DNA of 64,000 bases from Notolepis coatsorum (taxonomy: Eukaryota; Chordata; Actinopteri; Aulopiformes; Paralepididae), in assembly GCA_963971535.1 (NCBI GenBank), contig OZ020590.1, positions 149,123,680 through 149,187,679 on the forward strand, written 5' to 3'. Both the position numbers and the translations under genes were made by a program. Positions 1 to 45,766 of this stretch are shown piece after piece (the stretch's first letter is position 1; every line of letters begins with the position of its first letter). The notes under the pieces are model-generated. The model had not been told where the DNA came from and did not search any database. It saw nothing but the letters and a program-made list of their open reading frames with translations.

Positions 1-878
1 AGGAGGAGCAGGAGGAGGAGCAGCCTGACTCTTGGGAAATGCTCTCAGACATTTACCTCCCTGTCCCTCAGCGAGGGGCCCCACACCTGCCACCCGGATG
101 CTGTATTATTTTATGAGTTTTTTTATGAGCAGGAGGAGCAGGAGGAGGAGCAGCCTGACTCTTGGGAAATGCTCTCAGACATTTACCTCCCTGTCCCTCA
201 GCGAGGGGCCCCACACCTGCCACCCGGATGCTGTATTATTTTATGAGTTTTTTTATGAGCAGGAGGAGGAGCAGCCTGACTCTTGGGAAATGCTCTCAGA
301 CATTTACCTCCCTGTCCCTCAGCGAGGGGCCCCACACCTGCCACCCGGATGCTGTATTATTTTATGAGTTTTTTTATGAGCAGGAGGAGCAGGAGGAGGA
401 GCAGCCTGACTCTTGGGAAATGCTCTCAGACATTTACCTCCCTGTCCCTCAGCGAGGGGCCCCACACCTGCCACCCGGATGCTGTATTATTTTATGAGTT
501 TTTTTATGAGCAGGAGGAGCAGGAGGAGGAGCAGCCTGACTCTTGGGAAATGCTCTCAGACATTTACCTCCCTGTCCCTCAGCGAGGGGCCCCACACCTG
601 CCACCCGGATGCTGTATTATTTTATGAGTTTTTTTATGAGCAGGAGGAGCAGGAGGAGGAGCAGCCTGACTCTTGGGAAATGCTCTCAGACATTTACCTC
701 CCTGTCCCTCAGCGAGGGGCCCCACACCTGCCACCCGGATGCTGTATTATTTTATGAGTTTTTTTATGAGCAGGAGGAGCAGCAGCCTGACTCTTGGGAA
801 ATGCTCTCAGACATTTACCTCCCTGTCCCTCAGCGAGGGGCCCCACACCTGCCACCCGGATGCTGTATTATTTTATGA

Positions 879-1080
879 GTTTTTTTTGTGTTTTTAATAA
901 TAAATATTTTTTTTAATAAAAGATTTTTTTGTAACTATCTTGATTTAATTGAAAAAGTGGTTTAGGGATTTTTTATTTTTTTTGAGGTGGGCATAGATTA
1001 ATTTTTTTTAATCTAGATTAATCTATCTGCAATCCTGGATTTAATCTAGATAAAAATGGCTAAAAAAAGGATAAAATTAT
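879..1080. repeat. AT-rich spacer of the array (17 copies)
   Basis: This is the first of 17 spacers of about 200 bp. Others start near 1,708, 2,668, 5,735, 6,815, 7,150, 7,608, 7,953, 8,178, 8,778, 9,108, 9,567, 10,665, 11,747, 12,213, 12,931 and 13,390. Each contains AAAAAGTGGTTTAGGG, GAGGTGGGCATAGAT and the near-palindromic core AATCTAGATTAATC, then ATAAAAATGGCTAAA. Each is bounded by the same TTATTTTATGAGTTTTTT that joins ordinary units. Those near 7,953 and 8,178 share an internal deletion of roughly 110 bp; the one near 10,665 is slightly short. The spacer could be a former small insertion amplified with the array; no target duplication distinguishes this. Confidence 0.9.
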
Positions 1081-4000
1081 TTTATGAGTTTTTTTATGAG
1101 CAGGAGGAGCAGCCTGACTCTTGGGAAATGCTCTCAGACATTTACCTCCCTGTCCCTCAGCGAGGGGCCCCACACCTGCCACCCGGATGCTGTATTATTT
1201 TATGAGTTTTTTTATGAGCAGGAGGAGCAGGAGGAAGAGCAGCCTGACTCTTGGGAAATGCTCTCAGACATTTACCTCCCTGTCCCTCAGCGAGGGGCCC
1301 CACACCTGCCACCCGGATGCTGTATTATTTTATGAGTTTTTTTATGAGCAGGAGGAGCAGCCTGACTCTTGGGAAATGCTCTCAGACATTTACCTCCCTG
1401 TCCCTCAGCGAGGGGCCCCACACCTGCCACCCGGATGCTGTATTATTTTATGAGTTTTTTTATGAGCAGGAGGAGGAGCAGCCTGACTCTTGGGAAATGC
1501 TCTCAGACATTTACCTCCCTGTCCCTCAGCGAGGGGCCCCACACCTGCCACCCGGATGCTGTATTATTTTATGAGTTTTTTTATGAGCAGGAGGAGCAGG
1601 AGGAGGAGCAGCCTGACTCTTGGGAAATGCTCTCAGACATTTACCTCCCTGTCCCTCAGCGAGGGGCCCCACACCTGCCACCCGGATGCTGTATTATTTT
1701 ATGAGTTTTTTGTGTTTTTAATAATAAATATTTTTTTTAATAATAAAGATTTTTTTGTAACTATCTTGATTTAATTGAAAAAGTGGTTTAGGGATTTTTT
1801 ATTTTTTTTGAGGTGGGCATAGATAAATTTTTTTAATCTAGATTAATCTATCTGCAATCCTGGATTTAATCTAGATAAAAATGGCTAAAAAAAGGATAAA
1901 ATTATTTTACGAGTTTTTTTATGAGCAGGAGGAGGAGCAGCCTGACTCTTGGGAAATGCTCTCAGACATTTACCTCCCTGTCCCTCAGCGAGGGGCCCCA
2001 CACCTGCCACCCGGATGCTGTATTATTTTATGAGTTTTTTTATGAGCAGGAGGAGCAGCCTGACTCTTGGGAAATGCTCTCAGACGTTTACCTCCCTGTC
2101 CCTCAGCGAGGGGCCCCACACCTGCCACCCGGATGCTGTATTATTTTATGCGTTTTTTTATGAGCAGGAGGAGCAGGAGGAGGAGCAGCCTGACTCTTGG
2201 GAAATGCTCTCAGACATTTACCTCCCTGTCCCTCAGCGAGGGGCCCCACACCTGCCACCCGGATGCTGTATTATTTTATGAGTTTTTTTATGAGCAGGAG
2301 GAGCAGGAGGAGGAGCAGCCTGACTCTTGGGAAATGCTCTCAGACATTTACCTCCCTGTCCCTCAGCGAGGGGCCCCACACCTGCCACCCGGATGCTGTA
2401 TTATTTTATGAGTTTTTTTATGAGCAGGAGGAGGAGCAGCCTGACTCTTGGGAAATGCTCTCAGACATTTACCTCCCTGTCCCTCAGCGAGGGGCCCCAC
2501 ACCTGCCACCCGGATGCTGTATTATTTTATGAGTTTTTTTATGAGCAGGAGGAGCAGGAGGAGCAGCAGCCTGACTCTTGGGAAATGCTCTCAGACATTT
2601 ACCTCCCTGTCCCTCAGCGAGGGGCCCCACACCTGCCACCCGGATGCTGTATTATTTTATGAGTTTTTTTTTGTGTTTTTAATAATAAATATTTTTTTTA
2701 ATAATAAAGATTTTTTTGTAACTATCTTGATTTAATTGAAAAAGTGGTTTAGGGATTTTTTATTTTTTTTGAGGTGGGCATAGATTAATTTTTTTTAATC
2801 TAGATTAATCTATCTGCAATCCTGGATTTAATCTAGATAAAAATGGCTAAAAAAAGGATAAAATTATTTTATGAGTTTTTTTATGAGCAGGAGGAGGAGC
2901 AGCCTGACTCTTGGGAAATGCTCTCAGACATTTACCTCCCTGTCCCTCAGCGAGGGGCCCCACACCTGCCACCCGGATGCTGTATTATTTTATGAGTTTT
3001 TTTATGAGCAGGAGGAGCAGGAGGAGGAGCAGCCTGACTCTTGGGAAATGCTCTCAGACATTTACCTCCCTGTCCCTCAGCGAGGGGCCCCACACCTGCC
3101 ACCCGGATGCTGTATTATTTTATGAGTTTTTTTATGAGCAGGAGGAGCAGCCTGACTCTTGGGAAATGCTCTCAGACATTTACCTCCCTGTCCCTCAGCG
3201 AGGGGCCCCACACCTGCCACCCGGATGCTGTATTATTTTATGAGTTTTTTTATGAGCAGGAGGAGCAGGAGGAGGAGCAGCCTGACTCTTGGGAAATGCT
3301 CTCAGACATTTACCTCCCTGTCCCTCAGCGAGGGGCCCCACACCTGCCACCCGGATGCTGTATTATTTTATGAGTTTTTTATGAGCAGCCTGACTCTTGG
3401 GAAATGCTCAGACGTTTACCTCCCTGTCCCTCAGCGAGGGGCCCCACACCTGCCACCCGGATGCTGTATTATTTTATGCGTTTTTTTATGAGCAGGAGGA
3501 GCAGGAGGAGGAGCAGCCTGACTCTTGGGAAATGCTCTCAGACATTTACCTCCCTGTCCCTCAGCGAGGGGCCCCACACCTGCCACCCGGATGCTGTATT
3601 ATTTTATGATTTTTTTATGAGCAGGAGGAGCAGGAGGAGGAGCAGCCTGACTCTTGGGAAATGCTCTCAGACATTTACCTCCCTGTCCCTCAGCGAGGGG
3701 CCCCACACCTGCCACCCGGATGCTGTATTATTTTATGAGTTTTTTTATGAGCAGGAGGAGGAGCAGCCTGACTCTTGGGAAATGCTCTCAGACATTTACC
3801 TCCCTGTCCCTCAGCGAGGGGCCCCACACCTGCCACCCGGATGCTGTATTATTTTATGAGTTTTTTTATGAGCAGGAGGAGCAGGAGGAGGAGCAGCCTG
3901 ACTCTTGGGAAATGCTCTCAGACATTTACCTCCCTGTCCCTCAGCGAGGGGCCCCACACCTGCCACCCGGATGCTGTATTATTTTATGAGTTTTTTTATG

Positions 4001-4857
4001 AGCAGGAGGAGCAGGAGGAGGAGCAGCCTGACTCTTGGGAAATGCTCTCAGACATTTACCTCCCTGTCCCTCAGCGAGGGGCCCCACACCTGCCACCCGG
4101 ATGCTGTATTATTTTATGAGTTTTTTTATGAGCAGGAGGAGGAGCAGCCTGACTCTTGGGAAATGCTCTGACATTTACCTCCCTGTCCCTCAGCGAGGGG
4201 CCCCACACCTGCCACCCGGATGCTGTATTATTTTATGAGTTTTTTTATGAGCAGGAGGAGCAGCCTGACTCTTGGGAAATGCTCTCAGACATTTACCTCC
4301 CTGTCCCTCAGCGAGGGGCCCCACACCTGCCACCCGGATGCTGTATTATTTTATGAGTTTTTTTATGAGCAGCCTGACTCTTGGGAAATGCTCAGACGTT
4401 TACCTCCCTGTCCCTCAGCGAGGGGCCCCACACCTGCCACCCGGATGCTGTATTATTTTATGCGTTTTTTTATGAGCAGGAGGAGCAGGAGGAGGAGCAG
4501 CCTGACTCTTGGGAAATGCTCTCAGACATTTACCTCCCTGTCCCTCAGCGAGGGGCCCCACACCTGCCACCCGGATGCTGTATTATTTTATGAGTTTTTT
4601 TATGAGCAGGAGGAGCAGGAGGAGGAGCAGCCTGACTCTTGGGAAATGCTCTCAGACATTTACCTCCCTGTCCCTCAGCGAGGGGCCCCACACCTGCCAC
4701 CCGGATGCTGTATTATTTTATGAGTTTTTTTATGAGCAGGAGGAGGAGCAGCCTGACTCTTGGGAAATGCTCTCAGACATTTACCTCCCTGTCCCTCAGC
4801 GAGGGGCCCCACACCTGCCACCCGGATGCTGTATTATTTTATGAGTTTTTTTATGAG

Positions 4858-6227
4858 CAGGAGGAGCAGGAGGAGGAGCAGCCTGACTCTTGGGAAATGC
4901 TCTCAGACATTTACCTCCCTGTCCCTCAGCGAGGGGCCCCACACCTGCCACCCGGATGCTGTATTATTTTATGAGTTTTTTTATGAGCAGGAGGAGCAGG
5001 AGGAGGAGCAGCCTGACTCTTGGGAAATGCTCTCAGACATTTACCTCCCTGTCCCTCAGCGAGGGGCCCCACACCTGCCACCCGGATGCTGTATTATTTT
5101 ATGAGTTTTTTTATGAGCAGGAGGAGGAGCAGCCTGACTCTTGGGAAATGCTCTCAGACATTTACCTCCCTGTCCCTCAGCGAGGGGCCCCACACCTGCC
5201 ACCCGGATGCTGTATTATTTTATGAGTTTTTTTATGAGCAGGAGGAGCAGGAGGAGGAGCAGCCTGACTCTTGGGAAATGCTCTCAGACATTTACCTCCC
5301 TGTCCCTCAGCGAGGGGCCCCACACCTGCCACCCGGATGCTGTATTATTTTATGAGTTTTTTTATGAGCAGGAGGAGCAGGAGGAGGAGCAGCCTGACTC
5401 TTGGGAAATGCTCTCAGACATTTACCTCCCTGTCCCTCAGCGAGGGGCCCCACACCTGCCACCCGGATGCTGTATTATTTTATGAGTTTTTTTATGAGCA
5501 GGAGGAGCAGGAGGAGGAGCAGCCTGACTCTTGGGAAATGCTCTCAGACATTTACCTCCCTGTCCCTCAGCGAGGGGCCCCACACCTGCCACCCGGATGC
5601 TGTATTATTTTATGAGTTTTTTTATGAGCAGGAGGAGCAGCAGCCTGACTCTTGGGAAATGCTCTCAGACATTTACCTCCCTGTCCCTCAGCGAGGGGCC
5701 CCACACCTGCCACCCGGATGCTGTATTATTTTATGAGTTTTTTTTGTGTTTTTAATAATAAATATTTTTTTTAATAAAAGATTTTTTTGTAACTATCTTG
5801 ATTTAATTGAAAAAGTGGTTTAGGGATTTTTTATTTTTTTTGAGGTGGGCATAGATTAATTTTTTTTAATCTAGATTAATCTATCTGCAATCCTGGATTT
5901 AATCTAGATAAAAATGGCTAAAAAAAGGATAAAATTATTTTATGAGTTTTTTTATGAGCAGGAGGAGCAGCCTGACTCTTGGGAAATGCTCTCAGACATT
6001 TACCTCCCTGTCCCTCAGCGAGGGGCCCCACACCTGCCACCCGGATGCTGTATTATTTTATGAGTTTTTTTATGAGCAGGAGGAGCAGGAGGAAGAGCAG
6101 CCTGACTCTTGGGAAATGCTCTCAGACATTTACCTCCCTGTCCCTCAGCGAGGGGCCCCACACCTGCCACCCGGATGCTGTATTATTTTATGAGTTTTTT
6201 TATGAGCAGGAGGAGCAGCCTGACTCT
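4858..6227. repeat. Higher-order duplicate of 1-1,369 inside the array
   Basis: Positions 1-1,369 recur with a constant 4,858-bp shift. They share the order of unit lengths and private variants: the spacer variant TTTAATAAAAGATT (others carry an extra AAT) and the single GAGGAAGAGCAG unit near 1,230 and 6,088. From about 6,227 the best partner changes to 1,949-2,530 (shift 4,278). Segment 3,363-4,150 recurs at 4,347-5,135 with a shift of about 984, marked by a shortened unit with GAAATGCTCAGACGTTT. The pattern fits unequal exchange or gene conversion. Confidence 0.85.
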
Positions 6228-9200
6228 TGGGAAATGCTCTCAGACATTTACCTCCCTGTCCCTCAGCGAGGGGCCCCACACCTGCCACCCGGATGCTGTA
6301 TTATTTTATGAGTTTTTTTATGAGCAGGAGGAGCAGCCTGACTCTTGGGAAATGCTCTCAGACGTTTACCTCCCTGTCCCTCAGCGAGGGGCCCCACACC
6401 TGCCACCCGGATGCTGTATTATTTTATGCGTTTTTTTATGAGCAGGAGGAGCAGGAGGAGGAGCAGCCTGACTCTTGGGAAATGCTCTCAGACATTTACC
6501 TCCCTGTCCCTCAGCGAGGGGCCCCACACCTGCCACCCGGATGCTGTATTATTTTATGAGTTTTTTTATGAGCAGGAGGAGCAGGAGGAGGAGCAGCCTG
6601 ACTCTTGGGAAATGCTCTCAGACATTTACCTCCCTGTCCCTCAGCGAGGGGCCCCACACCTGCCACCCGGATGCTGTATTATTTTATGAGTTTTTTTATG
6701 AGCAGGAGGAGGAGCAGCCTGACTCTTGGGAAATGCTCTCAGACATTTACCTCCCTGTCCCTCAGCGAGGGGCCCCACACCTGCCACCCGGATGCTGTAT
6801 TATTTTATGAGTTTTTTTTGTGTTTTTAATAATAAATTTTTTTTTTTAATAATAAAGATTTTTTTGTAACTATCTTGATTTAATTGAAAAAGTGGTTTAT
6901 GGATTTTTTTTTTTTTTTGAGGTGGGCATAGATTAATTTTTTTAATCTAGATTAATCTATCTGCAATCCTGGATTTAATCTAGATAAAAATGGCTAAAAA
7001 AAGGATAAAATTATTTTATGAGTTTTTTTATGAGCAGGAGGAGCAGGAGCAGCCTGACTCTTGGGAAATGCTCTCAGACATTTACCTCCCTGTCCTTCAG
7101 CGAGGGGCCCCACACCTGCCACCCGGATGCTGTATTATTTTATGAGTTTTTTTTGTGTTTTTAATAATAAATATTTTTTTTAATAATAAAGATTTTTTTG
7201 TAACTATCTTGATTTAATTGAAAAAGTGGTTTAGGGATTTTTTATTTTTTTTGAGGTGGGCATAGATTAATTTTTTTAATCTAGATTAATCTATCTGCAA
7301 TCCTGGATTTAATCTAGATAAAAATGGCTAAAAAAAGGATAAAATTATTTTATGAGTTTTTTTATGAGCAGGAGGAGCAGGAGGAGGAGCAGCCTGACTC
7401 TTGGGAAATGCTCTGACATTTACCTCCCTGTCCCTCAGCGAGGGGCCCCACACCTGCCACCCGGATGCTGTATTATTTTATGAGTTTTTTTATGAGCAGG
7501 AGGAGGAGCAGCCTGACTCTTGGGAAATGCTCTCAGTCATTTACCTCCCTGTCCCTCAGCGAGGGGCCCCACACCTGCCACCCGGATGCTGTATTATTTT
7601 ATGAGTTTTTTTTGTGTTTTTAATAATAAATATTTTTTTTAATAATAAAGATTTTTTTGTAACTATCTTGATTTAATTGAAAAAGTGGTTTAGGGATTTT
7701 TTATTTTTTTTTAGGTGGGCATAGATACATTTTTTTAATCTAGATTAATCTATCTGCAATCCTGGATTTAATCTAGATAAAAATGGCTAAAAAAAGGATA
7801 AAATTATTTTATGAGTTTTTTTATGAGCAGGAGGAGCAGGAGGAGGAGCAGCCTGACTCTTGGGAAATGCTCTCAGACATTTACCTCCCTGTCCCTCAGC
7901 GAGGGGCCCCACACCTGCCACCCGGATGCTGTATTATTTTATGAGTTTTTTTTGTGTTTTTAATAATAAATATTTTTTTTAATAATAATATTTTTTTTAA
8001 TCTAGATAAAAATGGCTAAAAAAAGGATAAAATTATTTTATGAGTTTTTTTATGAGCAGGAGGAGCAGGAGGAGGAGCAGCCTGACTCTTGGGAAATGCT
8101 CTCAGACATTTACCTCCCTGTCCCTCAGCGAGGGGCCCCACACCTGCCACCCGGATGCTGTATTATTTTATGAGTTTTTTTTGTGTTTTTAATAATAAAT
8201 ATTTTTTTTAATAATAATATTTTTTTTAATCTAGATAAAAATGGCTAAAAAAAGGATAAAATTATTTTATGAGTTTTTTTATGAGCAGGAGGAGGAGCAG
8301 CCTGACTCTTGGGAAATGCTCTGACATTTACCTCCCTGTCCCTCAGCGAGGGGCCCCACACCTGCCACCCGGATGCTGTATTATTTTATGAGTTTTTTTA
8401 TGAGCAGGAGGAGCAGGAGGAGGAGCAGCCTGACTCTTGGGAAATGCTCTCAGACATTTACCTCCCTGTCCCTCAGCGAGGGGCCCCACACCTGCCACCC
8501 GGATGCTGTATTATTTTATGCGTTTTTTTATGAGCAGGAGGAGCAGGAGGAGGAGCAGCCTGACTCTTGGGAAATGCTCTCAGACATTTACCTCCCTGTC
8601 CCTCAGCGAGGGGCCCCACACCTGCCACCCGGATGCTGTATTATTTTATGCGTTTTTTTATGAGCAGGAGGAGCAGCCTGACTCTTGGGAAATGCTCTCA
8701 GACATTTACCTCCCTGTCCCTCAGCGAGGGGCCCCACACCTGCCACCCGGATGCTGTATTATTTTATGAGTTTTTTTTGTGTTTTTAATAATAAATATTT
8801 TTTTTAATAAAGATTTTTTTGTAACTATCTTGATTTAATTGAAAAAGTGGTTTAGGGATTTTTTTTTTTTTTGAGGTGGGCATAGATAATTTTTTTTAAT
8901 CTAGATTAATCTATCTGCAATCCTGGATTTAATCTAGATAAAAATGGCTAAAAAAAGGATAAAATTATTTTATGAGTTTTTTTATGAGCAGGAAGAGCAG
9001 GAGCAGCCTGACTCTTGGGAAATGCTCTCAGACATTTACCTCCCTGTCCCTCAGCGAGGGGCCCCACACCTGCCACCCGGATGCTGTATTATTTTATGAG
9101 TTTTTTTTGTGTTTTTAATAATAAATATTTTTTTTAATAAAGATTTTTTTGTAACTATCTTGATTTAATTGAAAAAGTGGTTTAGGGATTTTTTTTTTTT

Positions 9201-12200
9201 TTTGAGGTGGGCATAGATAAATTTTTTTAATCTAGATTAATCTATCTGCAATCCTGGATTTAATCTAGATAAAAATGGCTAAAAAAAGGATAAAATTATT
9301 TTATGAGTTTTTTTATGAGCAGGAGGAGCAGGAGCAGCCTGACTCTTGGGAAATGCTCTGACATTTACCTCCCTGTCCCTCAGCGAGGGGCCCCACACCT
9401 GCCACCCGGATGCTGTATTATTTTATGAGTTTTTTTATGAGCAGGAGGAGCAGGAGGAGGAGCAGCCTGACTCTTGGGAAATGCTCTCAGACATTTACCT
9501 CCCTGTCCCTCAGCGAGGGGCCCCACACCTGCCACCCGGATGCTGTATTATTTTATGAGTTTTTTTTGTGTTTTTAATAATAAATATTTTTTTTAATAAT
9601 AAAGATTTTTTTGTAACTATCTTGATTTAATTGAAAAAGTGGTTTAGGGATTTTTTATTTTTTTTGAGGTGGGCATAGATACATTTTTTTAATCTAGATT
9701 AATCTATCTGCAATCCTGGATTTAATCTAGATAAAAATGGCTAAAAAAAGGATAAAATTATTTTATGAGTTTTTTTATGAGCAGGAGGAGCAGGAGGAGG
9801 AGCAGCCTGACTCTTGGGAAATGCTCTCAGACATTTACCTCCCTGTCCCTCAGCGAGGGGCCCCACACCTGCCACCCGGATGCTGTATTATTTTATGAGT
9901 TTTTTTATGAGCAGGAGGAGCAGGAGGAGGAGCAGCCTGACTCTTGGGAAATGCTCTCAGACATTTACCTCCCTGTCCCTCAGCGAGGGGCCCCACACCT
10001 GCCACCCGGATGCTGTATTATTTTATGAGTTTTTTTATGAGCAGGAGGAGCAGGAGGAGGAGCAGCCTGACTCTTGGGAAATGCTCTCAGACATTTACCT
10101 CCCTGTCCCTCAGCGAGGGGCCCCACACCTGCCACCCGGATCCTGTATTATTTTATGAGTTTTTTTATGAGCAGGAGGAGCAGGAGGAGGAGCAGCCTGA
10201 CTCTTGGGAAATGCTCTCAGACATTTACCTCCCTGTCCCTCAGCGAGGGGCCCCACACCTGCCACCCGGATGCTGTATTATTTTATGAGTTTTTTTATGA
10301 GCAGGAGGAGCAGCCTGACTCTTGGGAAATGCTCTCAGACATTTACCTCCCTGTCCCTCAGCGAGGGGCCCCACACCTGCCACCCGGATGCTGTATTATT
10401 TTATGAGTTTTTTTATGAGCAGGAGGAGGAGCAGCCTGACTCTTGGGAAATGCTCTCAGACATTTATCTCCCTGTCCCTCAGCGAGGGGCCCCACACCTG
10501 CCACCCGGATGCTGTATTATTTTATGAGTTTTTTTATGAGCAGGAGGAGCAGGAGGAGGAGCAGCCTGACTCTTGGGAAATGCTCTCAGACATTTACCTC
10601 CCTGTCCCTCAGCGAGGGGCCCCACACCTGCCACCCGGATGCTGTATTATTTTATGAGTTTTTTTTGTGTTTTTAATAATAAATATTTTTTTGTAACTAT
10701 CTTGATTTAATTGAAAAAGTGGTTTAGGGATTTTTGATTTTTTTTGAGGTGGGCATAGATAATTTTTTTTAATCTAGATTAATCTATCTGCAATCCTGGA
10801 TTTAATCTAGATAAAAATGGCTAAAAAAAGGATACAATTATTTTATGAGTTTTTTTATGAGCAGGAGGAGCAGGAGGAGGAGCAGCCTGACTCTTGGGAA
10901 ATGCTCTCAGACATTTACCTCCCTGTCCCTCAGCGAGGGGCCCCACACCTGCCACCCGGATGCTGTATTATTTTATGAGTTTTTTTATGAGCAGGAGGAG
11001 GAGCAGCCTGACTCTTGGGAAATGCTCAGACATTTACCTCCCTGTCCCTCAGCGAGGGGCCCCACACCTGCCACCCGGATGCTGTATTATTTTATGAGTT
11101 TTTTTATGAGCAGGAGGAGCAGGAGGAGGAGCAGCCTGACTCTTGGGAAATGCTCTCAGACATTTACCTCCCTGTCCCTCAGCGAGGGGCCCCACACCTG
11201 CCACCCGGATGCTGTATTATTTTATGAGTTTTTTTATGAGCAGGAGGAGCAGGAGGAGGAGCAGCCTGACTCTTGGGAAATGCTCTCAGACATTTACCTC
11301 CCTGTCCCTCAGCGAGGGGCCCCACACCTGCCACCCGGATGCTGTATTATTTTATGAGTTTTTTTATGAGCAGGAGGAGGAGCAGCCTGACTCTTGGGAA
11401 ATGCTCTCAGACATTTACCTCCCTGTCCCTCAGCGAGGGGCCCCACACCTGCCACCCGGATGCTGTATTATTTTATGAGTTTTTTTATGAGCAGGAGGAG
11501 CAGGAGGAGGAGCAGCCTGACTCTTGGGAAATGCTCTCAGACACTTACCTCCCTGTCCCTCAGCGAGGGGCCCCACACCTGCCACCCGGATGCTGTATTA
11601 TTTTATGAGTTTTTTTATGAGCAGGAGGAGCAGGAGGAGGAGCAGCCTGACTCTTGGGAAATGCTCTCAGACATTTACCTCCCTGTCCCTCAGCGAGGGG
11701 CCCCACACCTGCCACCCGGATGCTGTATTATTTTATGAGTTTTTTTTGTGTTTTTAATAATAAATATTTTTTTTAATAATAAAGATTTTGTTGTAACTAT
11801 CTTGATTTAATTGAAAAAGTGGTTTAGGGATTTTTTATTTTTTTTGAGGTGGGCATAGATTAATTTTTTTAATCTAGATTAATCTATCTGCAATCCTGGA
11901 TTTAATCTAGATAAAAATGGCTAAAAAAAGGATAAAATTATTTTATGAGTTTTTTTATGAGCAGGAGGAGCAGGAGGAGGAGCAGCCTGACTCTTGGGAA
12001 ATGCTCTGACATTTACCTCCCTGTCCCTCAGCGAGGGGCCCCACACCTGCCACCCGGATGCTGTATTATTTTATGAGTTTTTTTATGAGCAGGAGGAGCA
12101 GGAGGAGGAGCAGCCTGACTCTTGGGAAATGCTCTCAGACATTTACCTCCCTGTCCCTCAGCGAGGGGCCCCACACCTGCCACCCGGATGCTGTATTATT

Positions 12201-13594
12201 TTATGAGTTTTTTTTGTGTTTTTAATAATAAATATTTTTTTTAATAATAAAGATTTTTTTGTAACTATCTTGATTTAATTGAAAAAGTGGTTTAGGGATT
12301 TTTTATTTTTTTTGAGGTGGGCATAGATACATTTTTTTAATCTAGATTAATCTGCAATCCTGGATTTAATCTAGATAAAAATGGCTAAAAAAAGGATAAA
12401 ATTATTTTATGAGTTTTTTTATGAGCAGGAGGAGCAGGAGGAGGAGCAGCCTGACTCTTGGGAAATGCTCTCAGACATTTACCTCCCTGTCCCTCAGCGA
12501 GGGGCCCCACACCTGCCACCCGGATGCTGTATTATTTTATGAGTTTTTTTATGAGCAGGAGGAGGAGCAGCCTGACTCTTGGGAAATGCTCTCAGACATT
12601 TACCTCCCTGTCCCTCAGCGAGGGGCCCCACACCTGCCACCCGGATGCTGTATTATTTTATGAGTTTTTTTATGAGCAGGAGGAGCAGGAGGAGGAGCAG
12701 CCTGACTCTTGGGAAATGCTCTCAGACATTTACCTCCCTGTCCCTCAGCGAGGGGCCCCACACCTGCCACCCGGATGCTGTATTATTTTATGAGTTTTTT
12801 TATGAGCAGGAGGAGCAGGAGGAGCAGCAGCCTGACTCTTGGGAAATGCTCTCAGACATTTACCTCCCTGTCCCTCAGCGAGGGGCCCCACACCTGCCAC
12901 CCGGATGCTGTATTATTTTATGAGTTTTTTTTGTGTTTTTAATAATAAATTTTTTTTTTAATAATAAAGATTTTTTTTGTAACTATCTTGATTTAATTGA
13001 AAAAGTGGTTTAGGGATTTTTTATTTTTTTTGAGGTGGGCATAGATTAATTTTCTTTAATCTAGATTAATCTATCTGCAATCCTGGATTTAATCTAGATA
13101 AAAATGGCTAAAAAAAGGATAAAATTATTTTATGAGTTTTTTTATGAGCAGGAGGAGCAGGAGGAGGAGCAGCCTGACTCTTGGGAAATGCTCTCAGACA
13201 TTTACCTCCCTGTCCCTCAGCGAGGGGCCCCACACCTGCCACCCGGATGCTGTATTATTTTATGAGTTTTTTTATGAGCAGGAGGAGCAGCCTGACTCTT
13301 GGGAAATGCTCTCAGACATTTACCTCCCTGTCCCTCAGCGAGGGGCCCCACACCTGCCACCCGGATGCTGTATTATTTTATGAGTTTTTTTTGTGTTTTT
13401 AATAATAAATATTTTTTTTAATAATAAAGATTTTTTTGTAACTATCTTGATTTAATTGAAAAAGTGGTTTAGGGATTTTTTATTTTTTTTTAGGTGGGCA
13501 TAGATAATTTTTTTTAATCTAGATTAATCTATCTGCAATCCTGGATTTAATCTAGATAAAAATGGCAAAAAAAAAAAAAAAAAAAAACCTGCCG

Positions 13595-27708: not shown

Positions 27709-28269
27709 GGGTCAGACAGTAATTGGCATGTCTTATGATGAACATGTGGGGACTGTAATGAAATTACATGTTTTCAGTTTTAGGACATTGGTCGTGGAGT
27801 TACCTCGCCTACGCTAAGTGCAGTTAGCTTTGATTGTCCAACAGTTGGAGCCAGAGCTCCTTGTGTATCTGCAACGTGAGAGAACATAATAGAAAAACAG
27901 GGAGAGAATGGATCGTAAAGTCAACTTGATGTCACCCGCTGAGCGTTTGGTTAACGTTATTAGTTTCCTTTGTATATATGATTCAGATTAGTAGAAAAAT
28001 ATGAAACTCTTCCTCTTTTAGGTGTTTTTGAGGTTAGATATTTAGCTCGTATCCGATGGTGGCTGCCACATGACAAGGACGTGTTGGGAAGTTTAGCGCT
28101 ACGTTGTTCTTAAATAGTTCCTCCACGGTTACATTTGTATACATGTAGACATATCCATATATCGGACGCTACACGCATGTTGCCTGGGAGTATTTATCTT
28201 ATACGTTAAACCCACGACCGAGAGTGAGCTTTCTGAAAATGACACCGCTCCGCCTGACAGTTTATCGGT
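27709..28269. other. No gene recognised
   Basis: No ORF or repeat I can assign. It is the region directly upstream of the U2-like sequence. I looked for an snRNA-type proximal element and could not identify one with confidence. Confidence 0.4.
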
Positions 28270-28296
28270 ATCGCTTCTCTGCCTTTTGGCAAAGAT
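28270..28296 (+). pseudogene. U2 snRNA 5' fragment (bases 1-27)
   Basis: The 27 bp begin ATCGCTTCTC and continue GCCTTTTGGC, AAAGAT. They match vertebrate U2 snRNA bases 1-27 at 25 positions (differences at bases 11 and 22). This is the 5' stem-loop of U2. Similarity fades after base 27, before the branch-point recognition sequence. Confidence 0.75.
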
Positions 28297-28389
28297 AGTG
28301 GGTATGCAGTCTGGGTACACGACAGCTCTAACTTCCACCAAGTGCACGTGGATTTGCGAAAACGGTATTTATAATTTTTTGAGGTGTGG

Positions 28390-30190
28390 CTTGGTCGGGA
28401 TGACAAGCCCACCCGCCTCGGATCAGTCGACGCCCATGGTCGGACTGCGGCACACGGCCCGCTTCAAGAGCGAGGGGCCAGGGGAGAGGGGGCTGCTGGT
28501 GAGGGGCGTCCTGATGGGGCAGCTCAACCTGAAGGTGGAGGAGGTAGACTGCCTGTGTAACAAGTGCCTTGTTGCCTTGTATGGATAATTACACCCCATC
28601 ACAAAATACACTTTAATACATTCCACTAATAATCCTTAACGTTTTATTTTATTGCTTTAAGATTTTATTTCATTGCTTTCGTTTTGTTTATTGTACTTTT
28701 GGGAGCCAAGGCTTTTATTTTGAAATCGACACCGTCCCTTCCGGAGCACACATATTGTCTGCTTCCTGTTTAACGTGCCAGTGTCTCCGTGAATTGAGAC
28801 AGGCGAGGTCCTTGCTCCATGTTCAATAATAGATTTCGATCTAAAAGTTGTTAAATATTGTATGTTACATTCCTAAACTGTGAAACGAGTTTGTAATGTA
28901 ACTCCTGTTGATAATATGTACCTGTGCAGTTTTGTGGGAGGTTTGACTGGGTAAAATGCACTTTAATAAGCATGTAGGAAGTTTGCACACAGTACGTGCA
29001 CTGGTAACAGGCTAATGGAGTCACGTCTTTTCTCAATTGTAGCTCGTGCTGTAGATGTCGTGACTGTTCCTAATGCTGATGCATTTTGTTGCCTTTGTAA
29101 AAACAGGTATGTGTACAGTAGCTCCCATGTTTTTGGTCCGTTTTGTATTCAATTGTTTATTTTTCCAATGTAATTATAATGTGTAATTCTTATGAGTCAG
29201 TCTCTCCGTGGCTAGAGACAGCTTGTGCTGTAGATGTCGTGACTGTTCCTAATGCTGATGCATTTGGCGTCCAGACGTACAACCCGTTTGTGACCGACCT
29301 GAGTTTGGCCGCCTTTCTGGGCAGGTACGGGGAAGTAAGGCCCACGGCGAAGTACGTGTACGACCCGTGGGGTATATGGACCGGCCGCAGGCAATACCAG
29401 GAACTGCTCCATCAGGACAAGGAGGGGCACGAGGGCCTCAGTCACCCCCCGGCCCTCTACAACCTGGGCAGTGACCGGGGTTTTCTGTATTACTCCCGGC
29501 AGCCGCCTTTCTGCCGTCAGTGCAGGACGTCGGGCCACACCGAGGCAGCTAGTAGTGGGGCTTCCTGCAGGTTCTGCGGAGGGGGGCACGAGGCCAGGTG
29601 CTGCCCGTGCCAAATAAGTGCCACGGCTGTGGGGCAAAGGGTCACCTCCTGAAGGACCGTCCTGCCCGTAGGAGGACGTTCGCCGAGGCTGCGGGGGGAG
29701 GAAGTGCAGCCCCCGAGGGCTGCTCCGACGGCACCTCCAAGGACGCATCCAAGGGCACCTCCTGGCGCAGCATCAGGGGCGGGTCCGGCTCCGGGGGCGA
29801 CTCAGGGTGTGGCACCGAGGGGACCAGGTACAGTGCCTTTTGTGGGACCGTTGCCATCACGGCATTCAACCGCCATGGAAGAGGGCGAGCCAGCGGCGCA
29901 GCCAAAGCCCGGAGCAGCCTTCATGGCCCGCTGTAAAAGGGCATGGGCGCTGGAGCTTCCGGCTGAGGGAGGCGGGAAGAGGACAAAGGAGACTGTGGGC
30001 GACGAGTGGGAGAGGGCCCTCGCCAAGATGAACGCGGGCTCGGAGGAGTCATCGGGGGACGAGATGGGCATCGATTACGGTGCCTTCCTGTCCCCCCAGG
30101 AAGTCTTTATAGGGACTTTGCCGATTAGAAGTTTTTATTGTTTGGATTTTGATGCATGTATTTTGTGTTTGACGTTTCTTTGTAAATAAA
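28390..30190 (+). pseudogene. CCHC ORF1 of a Tx1/L1-like non-LTR element (ZCCHC3-like)
   Basis: Pieces in order: 28,485-28,560 (RGVLMGQLNLKVEEVDCL); 29,212-29,620 (QTYNPFVTDLSLAAFLGRYG, GIWTGRRQYQELL, LSHPPALYNLGSDRG, RQPPFCRQC); a frame change near 29,620; then NKCHGCGAKGHLLKDR and RRRTFAEAAGG; another change; then an acidic tail around 29,995-30,085. This is the nucleic-acid-binding ORF1 of fish Tx1-type LINEs, often annotated as zinc finger CCHC domain-containing protein 3-like. The knuckles have lost final cysteines. A ~480-bp interruption (28,565-29,040) holds nothing recognised. It ends with AATAAAAGG just before the U2 3' fragment. No ORF2 (endonuclease/RT) is present. Broken. Confidence 0.75.
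29038..29268 (+). repeat. Local ~50-bp direct duplication in ORF1
   Basis: 29,041-29,088 and 29,220-29,267 both read (C/T)GTGCTGTAGATGTCGTGA then CTGTTCCTAATGCTGATGCA, about 180 bp apart. Only the second continues into the conserved ORF1 frame. Confidence 0.85.
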
Positions 30191-30203
30191 AGGGCAGCAA
30201 AAA

Positions 30204-30224
30204 ATCTGTTCTTATCAGTTTAAT
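30204..30224 (+). pseudogene. U2 snRNA fragment (bases 38-58)
   Basis: Twenty-one consecutive bases are identical to U2 snRNA 38-58 (core CTGTTCTTATCAGTTTAAT). A weaker match follows (CTGCGATCGCTCC against CTGATACGTCC). Bases 28-37, which include most of the branch-point recognition sequence, are absent between the two U2 pieces. The ORF1 element lies between them. Confidence 0.8.
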
Positions 30225-30462
30225 CTGCGATCGCTCCCTGTTTGCGGGTTGGTTCTTGCTGTGAGGGCGAACCTTTGCTGCCAAGGGGGACATTGTTCGT
30301 TTTTTTCCGCGCTTTTGCACATTTGTTGAAGGTAAGTAGATTTTAGAGTTAATATATTTTCTGGTTTTAGTATTAGCGGTTTTAGCGTTTGTATTTTAGT
30401 CATTTTACTTGTTTTATTGGTATTTTATTCTTTTATTGCTGTTGCTGGTGGTGTCTCCAGCC

Positions 30463-30702
30463 ATGTCGGCTACACGTGCCGGCATGAGGAGACACCACAG
30501 TGTCCGATTCAAATTTAGAGAGAAAGATGGAAAGGTCCTGGAGATGTCCCGATTGGACTTCTCCAGGAAGCTAATACAGAAAGCCATTGGTTTCTTACCA
30601 GCAGACCTGAATTGTGTAATGACTCTACCCTTTAACAAGGGCTTTGATGTGAGATGCAGACACAGATCCACGGAGATTGGAGCCGCAGCTGAACAGAGCT
30701 AG
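30463..30702 (+). pseudogene. Second CCHC-type ORF1, N-terminal fragment
   Basis: An 80-codon frame starts [18 protein letters not shown] and continues [20 protein letters not shown] and KGFDVRCR, then diverges and stops. This matches the N-terminus of the same ORF1 family (basic start, 'FDV' segment). It is not the missing start of the 28.4-kb copy, because it lies downstream of it. It may be another truncated element. Sequence to 30,926 has nothing else recognised. Confidence 0.55.
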
Positions 30703-35372: not shown

Positions 35373-37035
35373 TGTGTGATGGGTTGCATTCCATTCCTAA
35401 ATGCCTGTTTACAGAGTCCATCAGCAAGACATTTTATTGTTTTAATTCAATGTTATTCACTGACTGATTAATCTTGTACTGACAAAAATGCAGATAATAT
35501 ATTCCTCTGCTATAATAACAAGCCTGTTAGCCTACGCTGTCCCCCTTGATCAAATAAAGTAAACCTAAACCTAATGTGTTCTAATGGTGTCTCTTTTTTT
35601 TGTTTATTCTGCAGGTGGACACAGCAGATAACTGAGCCATATCAGCCCAATCCAAAAGAAATACCAGCTCAAAAACTGGCAAACAAAACGCTACGTTTCC
35701 AAGAAAAATGGTTTAAAGTATTTCCTTGGATTCACTACAGTCATACACACAGTGGAGTCCTGTGCTTTTATTGTGCAAACGCATTTCAACGTGAGAAGTC
35801 TACCCTGGCGAAATACACTGATCCAGCATTCGTTTCTGCTGGATTCAGAAACTGGAAAAAGGCTGTGGAGAGATTCACAGATCATACAAACAGCAAGTCT
35901 CATAAGCTTGCAGTTATTACACATTGTCAGTAACTCAATCCTATTAATTCTCAGCTTTCTAGTGCGTTGGCAGCATCACAGCAAAAAGCCATGTCATGCT
36001 TGAAGAAGATCATGAGCAGTGTGCAATTCCTGGGCAGACAAGGTCTGGCTCTCAGAGGCCATGAATCAGATCAAGGAAATCTCTGTTACTCAGGATGAGA
36101 TCAGATGATGACACCAAGTTGTTAGAGTGGCTTAATTCACGTCCTCAAGATTACACAAGCCCCAAAATCCAAAATGAAATGTTGAACATAATGGCAAAAT
36201 CCATCATTAGAGATATAGCCACTGAAATCAGATCACAACCACAGTTGCAATACTCCATTATTGATGGAACACAGGACATCACTGGGACCGAACAGGAATC
36301 AATCCGTCTTCGCTATGTTGACCACAACCTTATTCCTCATGAAGAATTTGTTGGTTTATATGAAGTTGAGCTCACAACTGGACAAAACCTAGCAAAAGCC
36401 AAAGATGTGCTGCTTCGTCTCGGTTTGTCTCTTGATGGGCTCCGGGGACAGACATATGATGGAGCAGCAAACATGTCCGGAAAATATTCTGGTGCACAAG
36501 CCTATATTTCACAAGCACAGCCACTGGCTCTGTACGTACACTGTGGTCCTCACTGTGTTAATTTGATAACACAGGCAACTTGCACAGCTTCATCTGTAGT
36601 CCGTGATGCTCTGCAATGGGTCCATGAATTGGGGCGTCTGTTTGGACTTTCAGGCAAGTTCAAGAACATCTTCAGCAACATTGCCACATCATCACATGGA
36701 TCCTTCACCACACTGAAGCCAATGTGTCCTACACGGTGGACTGTGCGAGTCGCAGCAGTGCATACAGTCCTCAATCAGTATGCGGCAGTGTTACTCAGCT
36801 TGGAAGAGATGGCTTCAACTAGCTCTGAATCAGCTCCAAAGGCAAATGGTCTGCTTGACAGATTCCAGAAAGGAAACAGTTCTGGGACTCCATCTTGCTT
36901 TGGAGGTTCTTGCGGAAATGGAATGCCTCAACAAATCCTTGCAAAGGCGAACCACCACAATCACAGGGATGCAGGCTACAGTAGAGTGTGTCAAGACAGC
37001 TCTCCACAAGAAACGAACAGAGGAAAGATTCCAAC

Positions 37036-37242
37036 AGGTATATGTCACAAATGTAACAGTACTATATATGTATGTCCCTATCCTATGTCATAAATGTCAT
37101 TAAGAATTGAAAAAGGGGGACCCTGATGTAAACAAGACGAAGGTCTTTCTCTGGTCTGCATCCCCTTAACAATTGTGTGTATTGAGCTGTACTGTATTGT
37201 ACCCATTCTGCAATCTGTTAAATAAAGTTCTCATTCATTCAC
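37036..37242 (+). repeat. LINE 3' tail inserted in the hAT transposase
   Basis: Starts TATATGTCACAAATGTAACA, contains the GGGACCCTGATG module and AATAAAGTTCTC, and ends CATTCATTCAC. Transposase coding sequence lies on both sides (..TEERFQQ and IFDNTAKLVTSL..). Confidence 0.85.
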
Positions 37243-37964
37243 AGATATTTGACAACACAGCAAAGCTGGTCACCTCACTAAACATCGATCCGATGGAAAT
37301 GCCTCGTATCCGCAACCCTCCAAAACGTCTAACTGGTGACGCTGCAGCACATGTCCAAGCAACTTCTGTGGACTTCTTCAGAGGGGAGTTCTTCAAAATA
37401 CTGGACACAGCAGATCTGCAATTCCGAGAGCGGTTTAATCAAAGAAGTTTTGAAGTGCTTCAGAAGTTGGAGGGTGTGCTTATTCGGGGAGAAAGTTATG
37501 ACATTGTGGACAAGTATCCAGAGATGAACAGGAGGATGCTGGATGTTCAGCTAGCCATGTTCAAAGCAAATAACACCTATGCATCAAGCACAGAAGCTGC
37601 AGACATCCTGAGAGGCATGTTGCCTGAAGTCAGAGGTCTTTTTGATCAGGTGGAGGTCCTTGTGGGGCTGTTGCTGGTTGTTCCCTCATCCTCTGCTGAA
37701 GCTGAGAGGAGTTTCAGCGGACTCCGGAGGTTGAAGACCTGGCTTCGCAACTCCATGAAGCAGAAAAGGTTGAACAGTGTGGCAGTTTGTCATATACATC
37801 AAGAAAGGGTTGATGCCTTTGACATGAGAGCACTCTGTGAGGAATTCATCTCTGGCCATGATCGGAGACAACATGTCTTTGGAAGCATTGGATGACTGGT
37901 CGATCGTTGAGACTTTCCCTGTAGATCTTTCCCTGAAAAAAAAATGTAAAAAGAAATTGTATCT

Positions 37965-45349: not shown

Positions 45350-45766
45350 GTTATTCTAACCAGCTTAGACCCCGACGCTCTGCATCTTCTGGCCGCCTCA
45401 GACCTACTCCTATCCGAGCTCCGGGAGGGTCATCAAAGAGAAGTCGCCTATTCTCAGTCCTTGCCCCACAATGGTGGAATGAACTACCCACCCCAGTTAG
45501 GACAGCCGAATCACGTCCAATCTTTCGCCGTCGACTAAAGACGCACTTCTTCAACCATTATCTGAATAAAAAAAAAATATCTAACCCTAACTAACCGTAC
45601 TGTCATGCACTTGTCCTAATAAACTAACCTACACTGTAGCACTCAACACTTTGATGAACATTGTTGCTCAGCTGATAGAGTTGTGCCCTTCCTGATGGCT
45701 TGTCGTACAGAACTTGTAAGTCGCTTTGGATAAAAGCGTCAGCTAAATGACTAAATGTAGTTCTGT
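45350..45766 (+). repeat. L2-type LINE 3' end
   Basis: Coding remnant with RTAESRPIF-like sequence and FRRRLKTHFFNHYL, followed by the widespread fish tail GTAAGTCGCTTTGGATAAAA, GCGTCAGCTAAATGACTAAA. Nested in the hAT. Confidence 0.75.

What the first reader, a model, noticed from the sequence alone, without database searches (positions are those of the whole stretch)
28270..30224. Non-LTR element inside a U2 snRNA sequence
U2 bases 1-27 (25 of 27 identical) lie upstream, and U2 bases 38-58 (21 of 21) lie downstream, of a Tx1-type CCHC ORF1. The Tx1-clade family Keno is known to insert into U2 snRNA genes. This copy looks like such an insertion, with ORF2 lost, near the branch-point recognition sequence.
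Basis: partly seen in the sequence, partly recalled or inferred. Interest (0 to 1): 0.78.

Follow-up and report, generated by a model that had tools for sequence, protein, structure and literature searches.

The report
ORF1-only retrotransposon inside U2 gene
A decayed copy of a small jumping element that carries only an RNA-binding gene sits in a U2 splicing-RNA gene, at the very site where hundreds of other U2 copies in this genome are interrupted.

Summary
U2 nt 1-27 (25/27) lies at 28270-28296 and U2 nt 38-58 (21/21) at 30204-30224, both beyond chance. The upstream sequence (27738-28296) is a genuine U2 gene 5' flank, 84% identical to a real U2 locus of this genome. Between the pieces lies a decayed ORF1-only retroelement ("A"). 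Its young relatives are a 1.5-1.6 kb family (15 exact 5' ends; 11 complete units from 13 loci, 98.5-100% identical). ORF1 is open in 4 of the 5 read, with no room for ORF2. So "ORF2 lost" is better read as a family without ORF2. Genome-wide, the 20-mer U2 39-58 occurs 1892 times: 1496 intact across the site, 384 preceded by AAAAA. One such site, read in full, holds a Keno-like element with ORF1, EN and RT. In four families the join removes U2 34-38, part of the branch-site-pairing motif. A second Keno-type element ("B") starts right after U2 nt 58. Some copies without a U2 promoter still begin at U2 nt 1-4, so the U2 head probably travels with the element RNA.

The parts
27738..28269 (+). 5' flank (promoter region) of a U2 snRNA gene
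   Evidence: 27738-28296 aligns to real U2 locus L007 at 84% over 606 columns; CCCACGACCGAGAGTGAG at about -59 is shared with L007
28270..28300 (+). U2 nt 1-33 with nt 28-29 missing: 5' part of the target U2 gene and/or element-borne U2 head
   Evidence: 25/27 over nt 1-27; same AGTG|element border in A1, B and L069 copies
28301..28399 (+). 5' untranslated region of element A
   Evidence: 13 other loci match at 76-78% from query position 30 or 31 (31 is U2 nt 1) to 316
28400..28558 (+). N-terminal part of A ORF1 (start of first RNA-binding domain)
   Evidence: 74.5% aa identity to ORF1 of family A1, residues 1-55; RBD_ZCCHC3_1st 16.7 bits, below its cut-off
28559..29265 (+). AT-rich interruption of ORF1 with a 46-nt direct repeat (29041-29086, 29220-29265); not in the A1 ORF1
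   Evidence: A1 ORF1 is continuous here
29269..30128 (+). rest of A ORF1: second RNA-binding domain, CCHC-like knuckles, C-terminus; frame broken
   Evidence: RBD_ZCCHC3_2nd 76.6 bits; stops in all three frames; alignment to A1 residues 101-408
30129..30204 (+). 3' end of element A with short poly-A; no room for ORF2
   Evidence: A1 loci match the query across this end at 69-71%; A1 3' end ...GGGCAGC(A)n
30205..30224 (+). U2 nt 39-58, target sequence 3' of the insertion
   Evidence: 20/20; 384 of 1892 genomic copies of the 20-mer also follow an A-run
30225..30655 (+). 5' part of a second Keno-type element (B): rest of a U2 head (CTGCG for CAGTG), 5' UTR, N-terminal ORF1 (ATG at 30463)
   Evidence: 30227-30653 is 87% to L059 and 84% to L034; RBD_ZCCHC3_1st 48.8 bits

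Best explanation
The region is a U2 snRNA gene copy that received two target-specific non-LTR retroelements of the Keno kind. Element A belongs to an ORF1-only, non-autonomous family. It most likely moves by target-primed reverse transcription with the ORF2 protein (endonuclease and reverse transcriptase) of full-length Keno-like elements, which nicks the bottom strand of U2 between nt 38 and 39 and primes on its poly-A tail. The 5' join lies at U2 nt 33, so nt 34-38 are lost and the gene can no longer make U2. Shown here: the junctions, the real U2 flank, the ORF1-only family, and a full-length element at the same site. Inferred: help in trans by Keno ORF2; transcription of the elements from the U2 promoter, giving RNAs that begin with U2 nt 1 to about 33; and, in this window, insertion of B before A with U2 39-58 left between them.
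For: U2 pieces beyond chance. The upstream flank matches a real U2 gene for about 560 bp. Of 1892 exact 20-mers, 1496 are intact across nt 31-58 and 384 are preceded by AAAAA, leaving 12. A1 copies L013, L014 (C37) and L016 (C13) read U2 promoter, U2 head, A, poly-A, U2 39 and on into U2. 11 of 13 loci tried gave complete A1 units of 1505-1621 bp, 98.5-100% identical; ORF1 is open to its stop in 4 of 5 read. The A1 ORF1 has both RNA-binding domains above cut-off. L069 at the same site has ORF1, RVT_1 and zf-RVT above cut-off and a weak endonuclease match; 305 exact copies of its 5' junction exist. Head without U2 promoter: 1 of 15 A1 heads (C35) and 7 of the 15 B heads whose flank I hold, out of 18, in three junction types at nt 2-4. 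dN/dS of ORF1, A1 against seven relatives: 0.31-0.62, all bootstrap upper limits below 0.9.
Against: No element with both an A-like ORF1 and an ORF2 was found, so the helper is not identified; A and L069 have different 3' ends, and their ORF1 share 45.9% over 109 aa. Not every U2 head in the fetched loci breaks at nt 33: L032 runs to about nt 42 and L033 to about nt 31 before unrelated sequence, and L043, L046 and L056 are ambiguous. Six of the seven C13 B copies were checked for a 3' end at the expected distance and none had one, so they may be rearranged rather than clean insertions. The C35 A1 copy shows no clear target-site duplication and its ORF1 is broken. The U2-58|B junction is unique in the genome, so it may be a rearrangement. 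Many array copies are probably duplicated with their U2 unit. Only the window copy and L041 (dN/dS 0.57 and 0.44) are shown to share the ORF1-only 3' end; the other five relatives may not be ORF1-only, and some of the aligned stretches are weak (35-45% identity).
Confidence: 0.84

Rival explanations
1. The copy is an ordinary full-length Keno that lost ORF2 by a private deletion after insertion.
For: The copy is decayed, with frame breaks and a 707-bp interruption.
Against: Other copies, nearly identical to each other and mostly with open ORF1, lack ORF2 in the same way, and their 3' ends match this copy up to the U2 junction.
Confidence: 0.07
2. The U2 pieces are wholly element-borne and the locus was never a U2 gene.
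For: U2 head present in copies without a U2 promoter.
Against: About 560 bp of U2 gene 5' flank upstream; the downstream U2 piece is target sequence that continues past nt 59 in other A1 copies.
Confidence: 0.04
3. Chimeric pseudogene made by template switching between a LINE RNA and U2 snRNA.
For: The 5' piece starts at U2 nt 1.
Against: The downstream U2 piece and the U2 promoter flank are not expected; the same kind of junctions recur in hundreds of copies.
Confidence: 0.02
4. The array copies, and the U2 head, spread mainly by recombination and amplification of U2 repeat units, not by transposition; the head is only residual target.
For: Spacing of copies on C8; A1 copies under one U2 promoter type in 14 of 15.
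Against: Element copies occur under more than one U2 promoter type and without a U2 promoter; poly-A length differs between copies.
Confidence: 0.1

Closest known systems
Keno (Tx1-type non-LTR retrotransposon of U2 genes; Kojima and Fujiwara 2004, recalled and cited by PMC4640811 and PMC6136364; not held)
   Same: Same 3' target, TCTGTTCTTATCAGTTTAAT (PMC6136364, named section); insertion at U2 nt 38|39; ORF1, an AP-type endonuclease match and RT in the full-length copy L069.
   Different: Element A has no ORF2. No Keno sequence was available to align.
Utopia (PMC4640811, passages and one named section read)
   Same: Same U2 site; the paper says its 3' flanks are identical to Keno's; tandem insertion reported for one family.
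   Different: Utopia generally has one ORF with a restriction-like endonuclease; here ORF1 is separate and an AP-type endonuclease match lies before the RT.
HAL1 (ORF1-only derivatives of L1; recalled)
   Same: Non-autonomous LINE derivative that keeps ORF1 and lacks ORF2.
   Different: A is targeted to U2 and its ORF1 has ZCCHC3-type RNA-binding domains and CCHC-like knuckles.
SINEU (SINEs with snRNA-derived heads; recalled, paper not held)
   Same: An snRNA-derived 5' head on a retroelement.
   Different: A codes for a protein and targets U2.

Membership tests
Keno | Insertion into U2 between nt 38 and 39 | tested here: met
   poly-A|TCTGTTC... junction in the window and AAAAA before 384 of 1892 20-mers
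Keno | AP-like endonuclease and RT in ORF2 | tested here: not met
   For element A: no EN or RT domain in 26-36 kb on either strand, and ORF2 pieces of L069 match nothing in the window; so A is filed as a non-autonomous derivative, not as Keno itself. In L069: RVT_1 104.2 bits; Exo_endo_phos 22.1 bits, below its cut-off of 24.5
Keno | Membership of the Tx1 clade by RT phylogeny | not tested
   A has no RT; no tree was made for L069
Keno | Sequence similarity to a Keno consensus | not testable with these tools
   no Repbase or GenBank Keno entry held
Utopia | One ORF with a C-terminal restriction-like endonuclease | tested here: not met
   L069 has a separate ORF1 and an AP-type EN match before the RT
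ORF1-only LINE derivative (HAL1-like) | ORF1 kept, ORF2 absent, across several copies | tested here: met
   11 complete A1 units of 1505-1621 bp from 13 loci tried; ORF1 open in 4 of 5 read
ORF1-only LINE derivative (HAL1-like) | Mobilised by the ORF2 of an autonomous relative | not testable with these tools
   needs a retrotransposition assay

The most novel reading that the evidence does not exclude
A long-lived ORF1-only parasite of Keno elements: it has kept a working ORF1 under selection while lacking ORF2, is transcribed from the U2 promoter as a U2-headed RNA, and uses Keno ORF2 in trans to re-enter the same few bases of U2, thereby removing the branch-site-pairing motif.
Probability: 0.45. 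Interest if true: 0.72.

Novelty: new variant of a known kind. Interest (0 to 1): 0.56.

Why it matters
Site-specific non-LTR elements in snRNA genes are few. An ORF1-only family at the U2 site would show that target specificity can be used in trans, and that ORF1 may be needed in cis even when ORF2 is borrowed. A U2-headed element RNA would explain how such elements are transcribed. About a fifth (384 of 1892) of the U2 39-58 20-mers in this genome follow an A-run, which makes it a good system for asking how U2 arrays tolerate parasites.

Tried and rejected
Promoter motifs: two recalled PSE consensus forms both chose a site at -60, but 730 and 325 of 1455 control slots score as well; no octamer or 3' box was found. 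The comparison with real U2 loci settled it instead. Target-site duplication upstream of U2 nt 1: only CAGTTTA, a score reached by 163 of 1695 control slots; rejected. Further U2 homology beyond nt 27 or nt 58 in the window: not above shuffles (367 and 160 of 500 as good). An snRNA-like Sm site and hairpin at 28359-28415: rejected, it overlaps the start of ORF1. Relatives of the window's ORF1 pieces or the 20-mer in viral contigs, and of one ORF1 piece in prokaryote genomes: none. PDB: only chance-level matches. Similarity of the A and B N-termini (50 of 1000 shuffles as good) and 5' UTRs (376 of 500): weak or none. C49 locus L077 as an autonomous parent of A: no ORF2 match, no U2 piece. B 3' ends on C13: six of seven copies checked at the expected place, none found.

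Full report
Observation. U2 nt 1-27 lies at 28270-28296 (25/27) and U2 nt 38-58 at 30204-30224 (21/21). Each scores 21 with match +1 and mismatch -2; the best of 100 dinucleotide-preserving shuffles of the window scored 16. Rfam's U2 model sees the first piece, weakly and below its cut-off (24.5 against 46 bits), and does not report the second. The two mismatches, nt 11 and 22, pair with each other in U2 stem I, and the hairpin folds with the same energy. The U2 genes of this genome printed carry the usual G11 and T22.

Between the pieces is an ORF1 with a strong RBD_ZCCHC3_2nd domain (76.6 bits against a cut-off of 27) and CCHC-like motifs. It is broken by frame changes and by a 707-bp AT-rich interruption that contains a 46-nt direct repeat. 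No EN or RT domain was found in 26-36 kb on either strand, and ORF2 pieces of a full-length relative match nothing in the window.

Its ORF1 (ATG at 30463) has RBD_ZCCHC3_1st at 48.8 bits.

The genome. The window's own genome (G000, 3.42 Gb, not named) became searchable. The window's 27738-28296 aligns at 84% with about 600 bp ending in a real U2 gene (L007), so the upstream piece is the start of a real U2 gene with its promoter region. The 20-mer U2 39-58 occurs 1748 + 144 = 1892 times, with 0 in the reversed control. Of these, 1478 + 18 = 1496 are intact from nt 31 and 265 + 119 = 384 are preceded by AAAAA, which leaves 12. So interruption of U2 at exactly nt 38|39 is common here.

One array unit read in full (L069, C8:443000-449300) shows U2 promoter, U2 nt 1-33, an element with ORF1 (both RNA-binding domains and CCHC), an endonuclease match, RVT_1 and zf-RVT, poly-A, then U2 39 onwards. 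Exo_endo_phos scored 22.1 bits, below its cut-off of 24.5, and EN and RT lie in different frames in this copy. The 5' junction of this family occurs 215 + 90 = 305 times exactly. This is what Keno is described to be: a U2-targeting family with an AP-like endonuclease (PMC4640811, passages and one section) and the 3' target TCTGTTCTTATCAGTTTAAT (PMC6136364, passages and two sections). The original Keno paper is not held. PMC9323068 (passages and one section) reports that CENSOR marks a manatee U2 sequence as 86.21% similar to Keno-1_SSa; I infer that this Repbase entry contains a U2-like stretch.

Element A. The window copy matches 13 other loci at 76-78% from query position 30 or 31 (31 is U2 nt 1) to 316, and a fourteenth to 239. 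The young family, A1, has 15 exact heads in the genome. I could cut complete units from 11 of 13 loci tried: 1505-1621 bp, 98.5-100% identical. ORF1 runs to its stop in 4 of 5 units read, and the C35 copy is broken. The A1 ORF1 (425 aa in L018) has both domains above cut-off. After the ORF1 stop only about 90 bases precede the poly-A, and A1 loci match the window across this end. L041 on C44 is another old copy with ORF1, a short 3' end, A-run and U2 39 onwards. So A is an ORF1-only family, not a Keno that lost ORF2 on the spot.

Selection on ORF1. dN/dS between A1 and seven relatives was 0.31 (L029), 0.32 (L056), 0.57 (window), 0.44 (L041), 0.62 (L040), 0.43 (L045) and 0.44 (L024, 53 codons only); all bootstrap upper limits were below 0.9. 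Among the relatives themselves values ranged from 0.17 to 0.80. Only the window copy and L041 are shown to share the ORF1-only 3' end, and some aligned stretches are weak. So past selection on ORF1 is likely, but part of it may have acted before ORF2 was lost.

The 5' junction and the U2 head. In the four families read (window A, A1, B, L069), U2 homology can be followed to nt 33 (AGTG), with small family-specific gaps: A1 AAG-TCAAGTG, B AAGACAGTG, window A AAGAT--AGTG, L069 without a gap. With the 3' junction at 39, nt 34-38 are missing; these lie in the branch-site-pairing motif (nt 33-38, recalled). Other heads in the fetched loci break elsewhere (L032 about nt 42, L033 about nt 31) or are ambiguous (L043, L046, L056). 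Of 15 A1 heads, 14 sit under a U2 promoter and one (C35) does not: it begins at U2 nt 1, its upstream flank matches U2 loci only in an 84-bp inverted stretch far away, and its 3' flank not at all. Of 18 exact B heads, I hold flanks of 15: 8 have a U2 promoter, and 7, all on C13, begin at U2 nt 2-4 after unrelated DNA, in three junction types. The simplest reading is that the element RNA begins at the U2 start site, so the head is both target and cargo. Against this, the 3' ends of six of these seven B copies were sought and not found, so they may be rearranged.

Element B. For 7 of the 18 exact heads, a poly-A|U2-39 junction lies 5.71-5.75 kb downstream in the places listed (the list is capped), as for a full-length element. 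In the window only about 430 bases remain (84-87% to L034 and L059). Its join to U2 nt 58 occurs nowhere else at up to 2 mismatches. One history fits: B entered U2 with its 5' join at nt 58, and A then entered the U2 1-58 left upstream. A rearrangement is equally possible.

Verdict. The new points are the ORF1-only family, the second element, the scale of U2 interruption, and the likely U2-headed RNA. Searches for print on Keno or on ORF1-only U2 elements (listings seen, few papers opened) listed nothing that describes such a family, but only open-licence papers are held.

Noticed in passing
window 28559-29265: AT-rich interruption of A ORF1 with a 46-nt direct repeat 98% identical while its surroundings differ; origin unknown, not in the A1 ORF1.
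   Followed up: partly
window 1-13000: Long array of repeats about 120-130 bp apart, seen as repeated open frames of about 108-115 aa.
   Followed up: no
window 45702-45756: UnaL2-type LINE 3' element, 54.1 bits against a cut-off of 55.
   Followed up: no
window 36065-37892: hAT transposase remnants: DUF4371 and Dimer_Tnp_hAT.
   Followed up: no
L070 (C9:162449500-162449830): The 3' end of a B element holds a tandem duplication with TCTGTTC, the start of the U2 3' flank, after an inner A-run: a possible trace of read-through RNA used for a second insertion.
   Followed up: no
G000 C13:180.06-180.14 Mb: U2 genes at about 653-bp spacing in a long array, with gaps of about 6.6 kb every 10 to 24 units, at which the 5' junction of the L069 family is found.
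   Followed up: partly
L046, L059, L060, L062-L064: U2 heads of several element families share the change G11 to T, which the five U2 genes printed do not have.
   Followed up: no
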